From: Nostoc edaphicum CCNP1411
GTDB lineage: Bacteria > Cyanobacteriota > Cyanobacteriia > Cyanobacteriales > Nostocaceae
Reading direction: 5' to 3'
NCBI RefSeq assembly: GCF_014023275.1
Contig: NZ_CP054698.1
Coordinates: 5,107,001-5,171,000, forward strand
DNA length: 64,000 bases
The translations under genes were made by a program, and so were the position numbers. Shown piece by piece: positions 41,276 through 46,819 of the stretch (position 1 is the first letter of the stretch; each line of letters opens with the position of its first letter). A model generated the notes under the pieces. That model worked only from the letters and a program-made list of their open reading frames with translations. It was not told where the DNA came from and searched no databases.

Positions 41276-43510
41276 ATGCAACCCTTTGAACTGCCAGAAT
41301 TTTACACGCCTTGGCCCGCACGGCTGAACCCAAATCTAGAAGCGGCAAGAGTCCATTCCAAAGCGTGGGCCTACGAGATGGGGATACTTGGCTCAGAAGA
41401 GGAAGCGCAAAGCTCGGTTATCTGGGATGAACATACATTTGACTCCCACGATTACGCCTTGCTTTGCTCCTATACCCATCCAGATGCGCCGGGAGCGGAG
41501 CTTGACCTAGTAACCGACTGGTATGTTTGGGTGTTCTTCTTCGACGATCACTTCCTGGAAATCTATAAACGCACCCAAGACATGGCTGGGGCAAAGGAAT
41601 ACCTTGACCGATTGCCAGCGTTTATGCCAGTGCATCCCACTGATACCCTTTCGGTTCCGACCAACCCAGTAGAGCGCGGCTTGGCTGACCTCTGGTCTCG
41701 CACTGCCTTTACTAAATCTGTGGATTGGCGACTTCGATTCTTTGAGAGTACCAAGAACCTCCTAGAAGAGTCTCTGTGGGAACTCGCCAATATCAACCAA
41801 GATCGGGTTGCCAACCCCATCGAATATATTGAGATGCGCCGCAAAGTTGGTGGCGCTCCGTGGTCAGCGGATCTCGTCGAACACGCCGTGTTTATAGAGA
41901 TTCCGGCCCAAATCGCCTCGACTCGGCCAATGCGTATCCTCAAAGACACATTTGCCGATGGAGTGCATCTTCGCAACGACTTATTCTCCTACCAGAGAGA
42001 AGTGGAGGATGAAGGTGAGAACGCCAACTGCGTGTTGGTCTTGGAGCGCTTCTTGAATGTGAGTACCCAGGAGGCGGCTAACCTCACCAACGAACTGCTG
42101 ACCTCGCGGTTATACCAGTTTGATAACACTGCCGTCACCGAGTTGCCCCCTCTCTTTGAAGAGTATGGACTAGACCCAGTGGCTCGTGTGAACGTTCTCC
42201 TTTACATCAAAGGACTCCAGGACTGGCAATCGGGCGGTCACGAGTGGCACATGCGATCGAGCCGTTACATGAACAAGGGAGGAGACAATTCTCAGACATC
42301 CACGCCACTTCTGGGAGGCCCCACAGGACTAGGCACATCGGCTGCGCGGATTGAATCGCTATACGCCGCCTTGGGTTTGGGAAGGTTCAAGAGCTTTACT
42401 CACGTTCCATATCAGGCTGTCGGGCCAGTAACACTGCCGAAGTTTTACATGCCCTTCACTACAAGCTTGAATCCCCATCTGGATGCTGCGCGGAAGCATT
42501 CCAAGGAATGGGCGCGTGAGATGGGGATGCTGGAATCACTACCTGGGATTCCTGATGCCGTCATCTGGGATGACCACAAGTTTGATGTTGCCGACGTAGC
42601 TCTATGCGGCGCATTGATCCATCCGAATGGATCTGGCCCTGAGCTAAATCTGACAGCGTGCTGGCTTGTTTGGGGAACCTATGCCGACGATTACTTCCCG
42701 GCACTCTACGGGAATAACCGCAACATGGCTGGTGCAAAAGTGTTCAATGCCCGACTGTCGGCGTTTATGCCTCTGGATGACTCCACCCCCAGCGAGGTTC
42801 CGACTAATCCGGTGGAAGCCGGTTTGGCAGATATTTGGTCTCGCACAGCTGGCCCCATGTCCGCAAACGCGCGGACTCAGTTCCGCCGCGCAATCCAGGA
42901 TATGACTGACAGTTGGGTGTGGGAACTTGCCAACCAGATCCAAAATCGGATTCCCGACCCGATAGATTATATTGAGATGCGCCGTAAGACCTTTGGTTCG
43001 GATCTGACAATGAGCTTGTCCCGACTAGCTCAGGGGAGCGAGATCCCGCAGGAGATTTACCGCACCCGAACGATGCGATCGCTCGATAATTCCGCCGCCG
43101 ACTTCGCCTGTTTTACCAACGATATCTTTTCATATCAGAAAGAAATCGAATTCGAGGGCGAAATCCATAACTGCGTGCTGGTCGTTCAGAATTTCCTCAA
43201 TTGCGGCACACCAGAGGCGGTTGAGGTTGTCAACAACCTGATGACCGCTCGGGCGCTCCAGTTTCAACACATCGTCGCCACCGAACTGCCAGCCCTTTTC
43301 GATGATTTCGATTTGGATGCAAGTACCCGCGAGAAACTGCTTGGATACGTCAAGAAACTAGAGCAGTGGATGTGCGGCGTCCTCAAGTGGCATATAACGG
43401 TAGACCGCTATAAGGAATTTGAATTGCGTAATTCGTTAGCAGGGCGGCTACTTAGCGGGCCCAGAGGGCTGGGTACTTCAGCTAGGCGTATTGGATCGAT
43501 GAGGGTTTAA
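41276..43510 (+). CDS. geoA: Geosmin synthase (bifunctional germacradienol/geosmin synthase)
   Basis: This 744-residue protein consists of two class I terpene synthase domains (about 1-365 and 385-744). The N-terminal domain converts farnesyl diphosphate to germacradienol and germacrene D. The C-terminal domain turns germacradienol into geosmin with release of acetone. The first domain has the metal motif DDHFLE (90-95) and NDLFSYQRE (234-242). The second has DDYFP (471-475) and NDIFSYQKE (615-623). Both domains end in a GPxGLGTSAxRI motif (about 348-359 and 725-740), showing internal duplication. Full motifs predict an active enzyme. The ATG at 41276 is fixed by an in-frame TAA 14 codons upstream. 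Two encapsulin-type genes follow on the same strand. The gene is GC-rich compared with its surroundings, suggesting transfer. Confidence 0.97.
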   Translation: MQPFELPEFYTPWPARLNPNLEAARVHSKAWAYEMGILGSEEEAQSSVIWDEHTFDSHDYALLCSYTHPDAPGAELDLVTDWYVWVFFFDDHFLEIYKRTQDMAGAKEYLDRLPAFMPVHPTDTLSVPTNPVERGLADLWSRTAFTKSVDWRLRFFESTKNLLEESLWELANINQDRVANPIEYIEMRRKVGGAPWSADLVEHAVFIEIPAQIASTRPMRILKDTFADGVHLRNDLFSYQREVEDEGENANCVLVLERFLNVSTQEAANLTNELLTSRLYQFDNTAVTELPPLFEEYGLDPVARVNVLLYIKGLQDWQSGGHEWHMRSSRYMNKGGDNSQTSTPLLGGPTGLGTSAARIESLYAALGLGRFKSFTHVPYQAVGPVTLPKFYMPFTTSLNPHLDAARKHSKEWAREMGMLESLPGIPDAVIWDDHKFDVADVALCGALIHPNGSGPELNLTACWLVWGTYADDYFPALYGNNRNMAGAKVFNARLSAFMPLDDSTPSEVPTNPVEAGLADIWSRTAGPMSANARTQFRRAIQDMTDSWVWELANQIQNRIPDPIDYIEMRRKTFGSDLTMSLSRLAQGSEIPQEIYRTRTMRSLDNSAADFACFTNDIFSYQKEIEFEGEIHNCVLVVQNFLNCGTPEAVEVVNNLMTARALQFQHIVATELPALFDDFDLDASTREKLLGYVKKLEQWMCGVLKWHITVDRYKEFELRNSLAGRLLSGPRGLGTSARRIGSMRV

Positions 43511-43565
43511 GGTCATTACTCGGTCAATAAAGTCAGGTTTTTTGTCGGTGAGTTAATTCAAGGTC

Positions 43566-43666
43566 ATACCATTTTGGATTTTAGATTTTAGATTTTGGAT
43601 TGTGAAACATCCATTGGATAAGTGTTTCAGTTTTCCATTTGTCGCAATCATTTTTCAAATTGGTAT
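43566..43666. repeat. MITE-like element with ATACCA...TGGTAT ends
   Basis: The left end ATACCATTTTGGA and the right end TTCAAATTGGTAT are near-inverted repeats about 100 bp apart. A related element is at 49864-49967. It separates geosmin synthase from the first shell-protein gene and contains AT-rich direct repeats (ATTTTAG/ATTTTGG). No ORF. Confidence 0.6.
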
Positions 43667-45240: not shown

Positions 45241-45371
45241 ATACGGTTTGATTAAGGCAAGAGACGCGATAAATCGCCGTCTCTACAAAAGATTGTTCCT
45301 TGTAGAGACGGCGATTTATCGCGTCTTTGGATCTAGAATTTTCATCAAAAAACCTTAACCGAACCGTATTG
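45241..45371. repeat. 131-bp palindromic MITE-like element between the two shell genes
   Basis: The outer ends ATACGGTTTGATTAAGG (45241-45257) and CCTTAACCGAACCGTAT (45354-45370) are imperfect inverted repeats. The core is the 28-bp-arm palindrome GAGACGCGATAAATCGCCGT... at 45261-45328, of the family also seen at 33882-33948 and 49908-49927. A heptamer array (CTCAGCA) precedes it. In RNA it would form a long hairpin between the two coding regions. Confidence 0.8.
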
Positions 45372-45412
45372 GTACTGAATGGCACTTTTATTACTAACTA
45401 GAGGATCGGCTG

Positions 45413-46819
45413 ATGACGGATTTTATTGAATCAAATTTAAATGTTGAGAGTGGACAACCTCAACTGAGTTTGAGTAAAGATGCTGCGCGTAATTTGTCCA
45501 CGACCACCAAATCTGCACCGCAGACGCAGGAAATTACCTCACGGTGGTTATTGAAGATGTTGCCGTGGGTGCAGACGAAGGGTGGCACTTATCGGCTGAA
45601 CCGTCGGTTGACCTATACAGTAGGTGATGGGCGGTTGAGTTTCTCCAACACCGGAGCCGAGGTGCAGGTGATTCCCCAGGAACTTGGTGAGTTGCCCTTG
45701 CTGCGAGGATTTGACGATATCGAGGTGCTGAGGGCGTTAGCAAGTCGGTTTGTTCAGCAGGAGTTCGCACCTGGTGATATCATTGTCCAGTCAGGTCAGC
45801 CAGCCAATCAGCTTTTCTTAATCGCACATGGCAAAGTAAACAAGATTGGTATTGGCAAGTATGACGAGCAGCCTCTATTGGATATGCTAGCTGACGGTGA
45901 TTATTTTGGCGATCGCGTGTTGGTCGATTCAGAAAGCAATTGGAAGTTCACAGTCAAAGCTGTGACCCGATGCACCGTATTAGCACTACCACAACAGGCA
46001 TTTCGGGAACTGCTCAACCAGTCGCAAGCGTTGCAAGCCCAAGTTGAGCAGTTTCGGACTCGCGCCGAACTTCCACAAAACAAGTATGGGGAAGCTGCGA
46101 TCGCGTTGTCAACCAGTCATAGTACAGAGACGACATTACCAGGAACATTTGTTGACTACGAACTTTCACCCCGCGAATATCAGTTAAGCATTGCTCAGAC
46201 TATGTTGCGAGTGAATACTCGCGTTGCGGATCTGTACAATCAACCATATAACCAGACGGAAGAACAACTGCGGCTGACGATTGAGGCATTGCGGGAACGT
46301 CAAGAATACGAGTTGATCAACAACCGCGAATTTGGATTGTTGCACAACGCCGACCTGAAACAGCGCATCTACACTCGCAGCGGCCCCCCAACTCCCGATG
46401 ACCTTGATGAACTAGTCACCCGTCGGCGGAAGTCGAGGTTCTTTCTGGCTCATCCCCGCACTATTGCAGCCTTCGGTCGCCAGTGTAACCGTCTGGGCAT
46501 CTATCCAGACACCATCGACATGGATGGGAGCAAAATAATCACGTGGCGCAATGTACCGATTTTTCCCTGTAACAAGATTCCGATTACCAAGAATCAGACC
46601 AGTTCTATCCTTATACTCCGCACTGGTGAGAAAGATCAGGGCGTGATTGGCTTACATCAAACTGGTATCCCGGACGAATACCAACCCAGTTTGTCCGTCC
46701 GATTTATGGGCATCAGCGAAAAGGCCATTATCTCTTACCTCGTCACTGCCTACTACTCCGCAGCTGTCCTCGTTCCTGACGCACTTGGCATCCTCGAAGA
46801 TGTCGAAATCGGTCGCTGA
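45413..46819 (+). CDS. Family 2B encapsulin-type shell protein with cyclic-nucleotide-binding domain (paralogue 2)
   Basis: This 468-residue protein starts at ATG 45413 after AGAGGAT. It has the same domain order as the upstream paralogue: N-arm (AARNLSTTTKSAPQTQEITS, RWLLKMLPWVQTKGG), inserted cyclic-nucleotide-binding domain at about 98-215 (GQPANQLFLIAHGKVNKIG, DGDYFGDRVLVDSESNWKF), and capsid core at about 245-468. The last 59 residues differ from paralogue 1 at only one position, whereas the nucleotide-binding domains have diverged much more. This fits co-assembly into one shell with different sensor insertions. The pocket again lacks the canonical arginine (SNWKFTVKA). The two genes are 276 bp apart with a hairpin element between them. 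No further biosynthetic gene follows on this strand. Confidence 0.92.
   Translation: MTDFIESNLNVESGQPQLSLSKDAARNLSTTTKSAPQTQEITSRWLLKMLPWVQTKGGTYRLNRRLTYTVGDGRLSFSNTGAEVQVIPQELGELPLLRGFDDIEVLRALASRFVQQEFAPGDIIVQSGQPANQLFLIAHGKVNKIGIGKYDEQPLLDMLADGDYFGDRVLVDSESNWKFTVKAVTRCTVLALPQQAFRELLNQSQALQAQVEQFRTRAELPQNKYGEAAIALSTSHSTETTLPGTFVDYELSPREYQLSIAQTMLRVNTRVADLYNQPYNQTEEQLRLTIEALRERQEYELINNREFGLLHNADLKQRIYTRSGPPTPDDLDELVTRRRKSRFFLAHPRTIAAFGRQCNRLGIYPDTIDMDGSKIITWRNVPIFPCNKIPITKNQTSSILILRTGEKDQGVIGLHQTGIPDEYQPSLSVRFMGISEKAIISYLVTAYYSAAVLVPDALGILEDVEIGR

What the first reader, a model, noticed from the sequence alone, without database searches (positions are those of the whole stretch)
41276..46819. 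Geosmin synthase next to two paralogous Family 2B encapsulin shell proteins: a probable terpene-producing nanocompartment
Directly seen: a complete two-domain geosmin synthase and, on the same strand, two proteins with the Family 2 encapsulin N-arm and core and an inserted cyclic-nucleotide-binding domain. Established knowledge: Family 2B encapsulins are HK97-fold shells, and terpene cyclases are among their cargos (the 2-methylisoborneol case). Inference: in this cyanobacterium geosmin is made inside a two-component shell that may control substrate entry (farnesyl diphosphate) or product release.
Basis: partly seen in the sequence, partly recalled or inferred. Interest (0 to 1): 0.92.

Follow-up and report, generated by a model that had tools for sequence, protein, structure and literature searches.

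The report
Geosmin synthase with two-part protein shell
A cyanobacterium carries, side by side, the enzyme that makes the smell of earth and two virus-like shell proteins that probably package it; this gene trio is a known type, but the comparisons made here give further evidence that enzyme and shell belong together.

Summary
Window 41276-43510 is an intact two-domain geosmin synthase; 43727-45136 and 45413-46819 are Family 2B encapsulin shell proteins, 73% identical, of the two types (Enc1, Enc2) solved from Streptomyces lydicus. The kind is known: geoA-cnb-cnb was described in 2020, geosmin-synthase-like cyclases were named Family 2B cargo with a possible GPTGLGTSAAR targeting stretch in 2021, and NCBI models name all three genes so.
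Not seen in the papers searched: (1) In 53 genomes of the window's genus, synthase genes (three divergent or broken) and shell genes occur in the same 31; in 244 cyanobacteria, 8 of 8 synthases sit beside two shells; 28 of 28 genomes with no shell near the synthase hold a Family 2B match elsewhere. (2) In two relatives another cyclase stands before the shells and keeps several tag copies; 8 of 8 cyclases taken from elsewhere in cyanobacteria lack it. (3) Gene conversion between Enc1 and Enc2 in three lineages (5 of 63 pairs, 0 of 395 ortholog controls), with the Enc1/Enc2 motif kept distinct.
Most likely the synthase is loaded by its tags into a mixed Enc1/Enc2 shell. Assembly and loading are untested.

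The parts
41276..43510 (+). geoA, two-domain germacradienol/geosmin synthase, 744 aa; putative encapsulin cargo
41534..41560 (+). N-domain Asp-rich metal site (FFFDDHFLE)
   Evidence: DDHFLE named as Cyano I motif in PMC7251104
41975..42001 (+). N-domain NSE metal site (NDLFSYQRE)
   Evidence: motif in PMC7251104
42317..42352 (+). tag copy 1, GPTGLGTSAARI, in the linker between the two cyclase domains (residues 348-359)
   Evidence: consensus from PMC8346489
42686..42700 (+). C-domain Asp-rich site (DDYFP)
43118..43144 (+). C-domain NSE site (NDIFSYQKE)
43457..43492 (+). tag copy 2, GPRGLGTSARRI, at the C-terminus (residues 728-739)
43727..45136 (+). Enc1-type Family 2B encapsulin shell protein, 469 aa
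43997..44371 (+). approximate extent of the cyclic-nucleotide-binding-like domain inserted in Enc1 (residues 91-215; Pfam match 116-203)
44735..44746 (+). Enc1 diagnostic motif 1, TVWK (residues 337-340)
   Evidence: motif defined in PMC12407261
44828..44857 (+). Enc1 diagnostic motif 2 region (luminal loop in S. lydicus)
   Evidence: PMC12407261
45262..45326 (.). 65-bp inverted repeat (27-nt arms, fully complementary, 11 nt between) between Enc1 and Enc2; MITE-like, a second, less perfect copy near 33882
45413..46819 (+). Enc2-type Family 2B encapsulin shell protein, 468 aa
45683..46057 (+). approximate extent of the cyclic-nucleotide-binding-like domain inserted in Enc2 (residues 91-215)
46421..46432 (+). 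Enc2 diagnostic motif 1, RRRK (residues 337-340)
   Evidence: PMC12407261
46511..46540 (+). Enc2 diagnostic motif 2 region
   Evidence: PMC12407261

Best explanation
[quoted passage not shown] Enc1 and Enc2 are HK97-fold shell proteins that co-assemble into one mixed, roughly 28-nm, 60-subunit shell; Enc2 can build shells alone and Enc1 is incorporated. Geosmin synthase is taken inside by its two GPTGLGTSAAR tags (linker and C-terminus) binding the luminal face of the shell. There it turns farnesyl diphosphate, entering by the two-fold pores under the flexible cyclic-nucleotide-like domains, into germacradienol and geosmin. Shown here: genes, types, tags, metal sites, conservation, co-occurrence, and presence of the tag on replacement cyclases. 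Shown by others in S. lydicus: mixed assembly, shell size, Enc2 assembling alone and Enc1 not. Inferred: all of these for this trio, loading of this synthase, the tag as loading signal, route of substrate and product, benefit to the cell.
For: Family and PDB matches. Enc1 type then Enc2 type downstream of the synthase in 21 of 24 cyanobacterial loci, the other 3 running into a contig end with a shell gene begun. The same 31 of 53 genomes of the genus hold synthase and shell genes; 8 of 8 synthases in the phylum sample of 244 have two adjacent shells; 11 of 11 in 198 Actinomycetota have a shell in the genome; 28 of 28 genomes with no shell in the held flank of the synthase have a Family 2B match elsewhere, 26 over the cut-off. 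Cargo replacement with several tag copies in two relatives; 0 of 8 cyclases taken from elsewhere in cyanobacteria carry it. The six single-shell loci with at least 3 kb of sequence on both sides all have the Enc2 type, fitting the report that S. lydicus Enc1 does not assemble alone (PMC12407261). Gene conversion between Enc1 and Enc2 genes in three lineages.
Against: No assembly or loading experiment for this trio or, in the listings and passages seen, for any geosmin synthase. Bacterial geosmin synthases are known to act as free enzymes in vitro (recalled), so the shell is not needed for catalysis as such. Linker-tag quality does not follow linkage independently of descent: only 4 changes of linkage on the tree, sign test not significant. 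The actinomycete co-occurrence is mostly one clade: 8 of the 11 genomes also belong to the Streptomyces-type genus sampled. In that genus one genome has a synthase match, at a contig start, and no shell. The predicted models are of low confidence.
Confidence: 0.76

Rival explanations
1. Enc1 and Enc2 form two separate homomeric shells, or Enc1 acts only as an assembly or cargo adaptor, and the synthase loads one of them.
For: PMC8346489 states that two separately assembling shells could not be excluded. Loci with one shell of the Enc2 type exist beside geosmin synthases: 6 of the 6 with at least 3 kb on both sides (L030 and L066 are close kin).
Against: S. lydicus Enc1 does not assemble alone and co-assembles with Enc2 (PMC12407261). 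Gene conversion makes the two genes alike in three lineages, as expected of subunits that must fit each other, though it also happens between tandem copies for no such reason.
Confidence: 0.14
2. The two downstream genes are Crp/Fnr-like regulators of geosmin synthesis, as older geosmin and 2-MIB papers assume, and no compartment is made.
For: The domain PF00027 matches, with weak matches of that domain to regulator models; PMC7251104 and PMC3072421 describe the genes as cyclic nucleotide-binding, Crp/Fnr type.
Against: At E 0.001 the only Pfam matches are PF19307 and PF00027, with no DNA-binding domain; near full-length match to the solved shells 9bje and 9bix at E below 1e-184.
Confidence: 0.03
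3. The GLGTSAAR stretches serve cyclase folding, dimerisation or membrane contact, and co-occurrence with shells reflects shared descent or shared transfer, not packaging.
For: C-terminal copies persist in synthases with no shell nearby (9 or more of 11 positions in 18 of 28).
Against: All 28 of those genomes have a Family 2B match elsewhere, 26 over the cut-off. The tag rides on two replacement cyclases whose catalytic parts share only 22-27% identity while their tails share 54%, and it is absent from 8 of 8 cyclases taken from elsewhere in cyanobacteria.
Confidence: 0.07

Closest known systems
S. lydicus two-component Family 2B encapsulin (Sl-Enc1 9bje, Sl-Enc2 9bix; PMC12407261)
   Same: Two shell proteins of the same two types, same order, same diagnostic motif 1 (TVWK, RRRK); best PDB matches.
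   Different: Xylulose-kinase operon with no native cargo determined; here the neighbour is a geosmin synthase.
Family 2B terpene-cyclase encapsulins, GS-like group (PMC8346489)
   Same: Two cyclase domains, GPTGLGTSAAR between them and at the C-terminus, Family 2B shells in the same operon.
   Different: Nothing essential; this is a member.
Streptomyces griseus Family 2B shell (9bhu) and 2-methylisoborneol synthase cargo
   Same: Family 2B shell; 2-MIBS-like cyclases carry a GPTGLGT stretch.
   Different: 2-MIBS-like cyclases have one cyclase domain with the stretch in an N-terminal region. That 9bhu is the 2-MIB shell is recalled; no paper on it was read.
geoA-cnb-cnb cluster of cyanobacteria and Deltaproteobacteria (PMC7251104)
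   Same: The same three genes in the same order.
   Different: That paper read the cnb genes as Crp/Fnr-type regulators.

Membership tests
Family 2B encapsulin shell | HK97-fold encapsulin core (PF19307, NF041163) | tested here: met
   fold search of the low-confidence Enc2 model agrees
Family 2B encapsulin shell | cyclic-nucleotide-binding-like domain inserted before the C-terminal core | tested here: met
   PF00027 at residues 116-203 in both
Family 2B encapsulin shell | self-assembly into an icosahedral shell | not testable with these tools
   needs expression and microscopy
Two-component Family 2B system | two adjacent shell genes of the Enc1 and Enc2 types, told apart by motif 1 | tested here: met
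   TVWK and RRRK at residues 337-340; same split in relatives
Two-component Family 2B system | mixed shells | not testable with these tools
   seen reported for S. lydicus only (PMC12407261)
Family 2B terpene-cyclase cargo, GS-like | two cyclase domains and GPTGLGTSAAR-like stretches in linker and C-terminus | tested here: met
Family 2B terpene-cyclase cargo, GS-like | encapsulation | not testable with these tools
   needs co-purification
Germacradienol/geosmin synthase | metal sites in both domains | tested here: met
Germacradienol/geosmin synthase | product geosmin | not testable with these tools
   needs assay
Cyclic-nucleotide-binding protein | binds cyclic nucleotide | not testable with these tools
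   W177 is invariant in 31 Enc1-type rows and 36 Enc2-type rows, near where canonical sites hold an arginine (recalled); Family 2B domains are reported not to bind (PMC12407261)

The most novel reading that the evidence does not exclude
Encapsulation is the general state of geosmin synthase, also where the shell gene lies far away as in Streptomyces, and Family 2B shells are exchangeable terpene reactors: the GLGTSAAR tail is a portable loading module that brings in new cyclases, including a third, cucumene-synthase-like class besides the 2-MIB-like and geosmin-like ones. The shell pair is kept compatible by recurrent gene conversion that selection does not let into the Enc1/Enc2 identity motif.
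Probability: 0.5. Interest if true: 0.75.

Novelty: new member of a known kind. Interest (0 to 1): 0.5.

Why it matters
Geosmin is a main earthy off-flavour of drinking water and fish, and why its synthase sits beside virus-derived shells is open. If it is made inside a shell, control of its formation and release, and its storage in cells, can be tested directly. The natural cargo replacements give ready-made domain swaps for finding the loading signal and for loading other cyclases into a nanoreactor.

Tried and rejected
Enc2's local difference from Enc1 near residue 337 first looked like a frameshift or an error; and PMC12407261 show that it is the conserved Enc2 motif. Linker-tag quality against linkage: 39 of 53 linked and 6 of 28 unlinked synthases match 9 or more of 11 positions, but there are only 4 changes of linkage on the tree, so this is not independent evidence (the second cyclase of L017 was left out). 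Avoidance of the motif by recent conversion tracts is not significant by itself, since three independent lineages could miss it by chance; that is my estimate, not a call. For the window's own pair no recent conversion is shown (run p 0.59); its segment 329-400 is less alike than the rest at silent sites (p 0.013), but orthologs share part of that pattern. Only 6 of 42 pairs show that segment as lower at p below 0.05. Segment trees gave 5 to 8 label changes for every segment and were not decisive. The chimera's cyclase was sought in 195 Myxococcota: none at E 1e-70, with no positive control; in 61 genomes of its own family: only the source; in plasmids, a relative of P0134 in Streptomyces clavuligerus aligns only from residue 25, past the tag, and lies far from that replicon's Family 2B shell, which speaks against tags on all members of that class. 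Two structure predictions gave low confidence.
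Full report
What is there. Three same-strand genes: a 744-aa two-domain geosmin synthase and two shell proteins of 469 and 468 aa. Pfam, NCBIfam and PDB searches agree. The metal sites of both cyclase domains are present, and the N-domain motifs are those given for group Cyano I in PMC7251104. The synthase carries GPTGLGTSAARI in the linker and GPRGLGTSARRI at the C-terminus. The shells are 73% identical (343 of 468). The first carries motif TVWK and matches Sl-Enc1 best, the second RRRK and matches Sl-Enc2 best. 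The window's genome has no other PF19307 match at E 0.001.

What is in print. PMC7251104 (passages) describes geoA followed by two cnb genes in Cyanobacteria and Deltaproteobacteria and reads them as Crp/Fnr-type regulators. PMC3072421 (passages) has two cnb genes around the 2-MIB genes. PMC8346489 (passages) names geosmin-synthase-like cyclases as Family 2B cargo, counts 64 cyanobacterial terpene-cyclase operons, proposes GPTGLGTSAAR as a possible targeting sequence, and leaves open whether double shells mix. PMC12407261 (abstract; sections 4, 6 and 8; first parts of 9, 11 and 30) shows mixed shells for S. lydicus and defines the Enc1/Enc2 motifs. PMC8049743 (one passage) defines Family 2a and 2b. 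All other papers were seen only in search listings. Eight library searches listed no paper that by title or abstract start reports encapsulated geosmin synthase or gene conversion between encapsulins; most subscription papers and bioRxiv preprints are not held, so absence from print is not shown. The trio is a new member of a known kind.

Neighbourhood survey. Of 24 cyanobacterial loci, 21 have synthase, then Enc1 type, then Enc2 type (in L024 the Enc1 motif reads TVGR); the other 3 run into a contig end with a shell gene begun. Of 81 synthases, 53 have a shell in the held flank and 28 do not: 27 Actinomycetota and one Myxococcota. The flank is up to 10 kb on each side, less where the contig ends, as in several of the 28. 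Six loci with one shell gene and at least 3 kb of sequence on both sides (L030, L031, L044, L055, L065, L066; L030 and L066 close kin) all have the Enc2 type, which fits the report that Sl-Enc1 cannot assemble alone.

Co-occurrence in whole genomes. Window's genus, 53 genomes: synthase genes in 31 (28 over the cut-off; G244 full-length at 1068 bits; G288 with a broken frame; G289 a fragment) and a Family 2B shell over the cut-off in the same 31, two of which (G282, G289) have only one shell over the cut-off. The other 22 have neither over the cut-off; four of them hold shell fragments. At E 0.001 the shell model also rings through its cyclic-nucleotide domain in 9 of 14 control genomes, in none over the cut-off. 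Cyanobacteria, 244 genomes: synthase over the cut-off in 8, all with two adjacent shells. Two further genomes have full-length Family 2B shells: G039 with a chimeric cyclase, and G229 with a single shell whose next gene, 644 aa, I take for a cysteine desulfurase (by eye, no family search). Five other hits match only the core and are Family 2A-like. Actinomycetota, 198 genomes: synthase at E 1e-200 in 11 (967-1199 bits, all just under NCBI's 1200-bit cut-off or lower) and Family 2B in the same 11, plus one 2A-like hit; in only 3 of the 11 do the hits lie together. Streptomyces-type genus, 150 genomes: both in 146, neither in 2, one only in 2. Of the 28 genomes with an unlinked synthase, all 28 have a Family 2B match elsewhere: 26 over the cut-off, 2 as pieces only, and one of the 28 has a second, linked synthase (L028). 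Fisher p-values (2e-15 for the genus, 2e-13 for the cyanobacterial sample, 3e-18 for the actinomycete sample, 8e-4 for the Streptomyces-type genus) ignore descent; 8 of the 11 actinomycete genomes belong to that one genus.

Cargo replacement. In G039 (L147) the gene in front of Enc1 and Enc2 is a 597-aa open frame: residues 1-108 of geosmin synthase (84% identity), then a single cyclase domain closest to cucumene synthase 6m7f/6egk (E about 1e-96), then a tail with three GLGTSA copies. P0121, labelled MULTISPECIES, unclassified Microcoleus (3 member sequences, 2 contigs), is the same protein at 100% over 98%, which speaks against an assembly error. In G244 (L140) a divergent two-domain cyclase (50% identity) with three GLGTS tail copies stands before shells of 89% and 86% identity. 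The two tails share 54% over 107 residues, while the catalytic parts share 22-27%. Of 16 chimera-like or cucumene-synthase-like proteins scanned with a loose pattern, 14 carry a GLGTSAAR-like stretch; they were chosen from 20 fetched, themselves from the 120 listed of 4482, and their gene neighbours are unknown. Eight single-domain cyclases taken from elsewhere in cyanobacterial genomes (a choice among the rows), the window's own second one included, show none by the same pattern. L017 has two synthase-like genes in tandem (82% and 60%) before one shell pair. This fits a portable loading tag better than a part of the catalytic fold.

Two shell types held apart. A quick whole-protein tree of 40 of the 42 complete pairs needs at least 7 changes between Enc1 and Enc2 on supported branches: pairs from one lineage often group together (L045 with a frameshifted Enc2 and L047 with an odd second shell left out). 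Across the 40 pairs only five columns, all within residues 336-343, never share a residue. The types had been assigned by RR[RK] in residues 333-345, so columns 338 and 339 are partly circular; 336, 341 and 343 are not. Silent-site run tests on 63 distinct pairs (75 before removing identical ones) find 5 at p about 0.001: L014 residues 70-288, L024 2-76, and three Planotetraspora at 230-332, 230-308 and 230-313, against 0 of 395 ortholog comparisons, a random quarter of the possible ones, kept if 45-90% alike at silent sites; 18 of the 395 reach p 0.05, as chance gives. So gene conversion between the two shell genes is real in three lineages, and motif 1 stays distinct. For the window's own pair it is not shown, and 58 of the 63 pairs show no such tract.

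Mechanism and limits. The best account is loading of geosmin synthase by its tags into mixed shells. Not shown: assembly, loading, product, and any role of the inserted domain. W177 of that domain is invariant in both shell types, which suggests a conserved ligand site of another kind than for cyclic nucleotides; this is inference. AlphaFold models from shallow alignments (31 and 36 rows) were poor and add little beyond the sequence match.

Noticed in passing
45262-45326, and near 33882-33948: A MITE-like element with a 27-nt inverted repeat lies between Enc1 and Enc2; a second, less perfect copy lies upstream. It may affect co-transcription of the shell genes.
   Followed up: partly
40815-40932: A 52-bp unit repeated 2.3 times (93% matches) lies about 340 bp upstream of geoA.
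   Followed up: no
50053-52635 (-): An 860-aa fusion of an N6-adenine-methylase-like part with BsuBI/PstI restriction endonuclease domains, a possible one-protein restriction-modification system.
   Followed up: no
L147:4317-6107 (-): Chimeric cyclase: geosmin synthase N-terminus plus cucumene-synthase-like domain plus three-copy tag tail, in front of Enc1 and Enc2.
   Followed up: yes
L140:49-2577 (+): Divergent two-domain cyclase (50% to the window's) with three tail tags beside relatives of the window's shells at 89% and 86%; its product may differ.
   Followed up: partly
L017:7702-12271: Two geosmin-synthase-like genes in tandem before one shell pair.
   Followed up: partly
P0228: A metagenomic protein in which geosmin synthase runs in frame into the last residues of a shell protein, apparently by a deletion.
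   Followed up: no
L032: A Comamonas record whose shells group with those of Myxococcus xanthus on short branches: recent transfer or contamination.
   Followed up: no
L019-L023: One clade of cyanobacterial synthases has a second C-terminal tag copy, three in all.
   Followed up: partly
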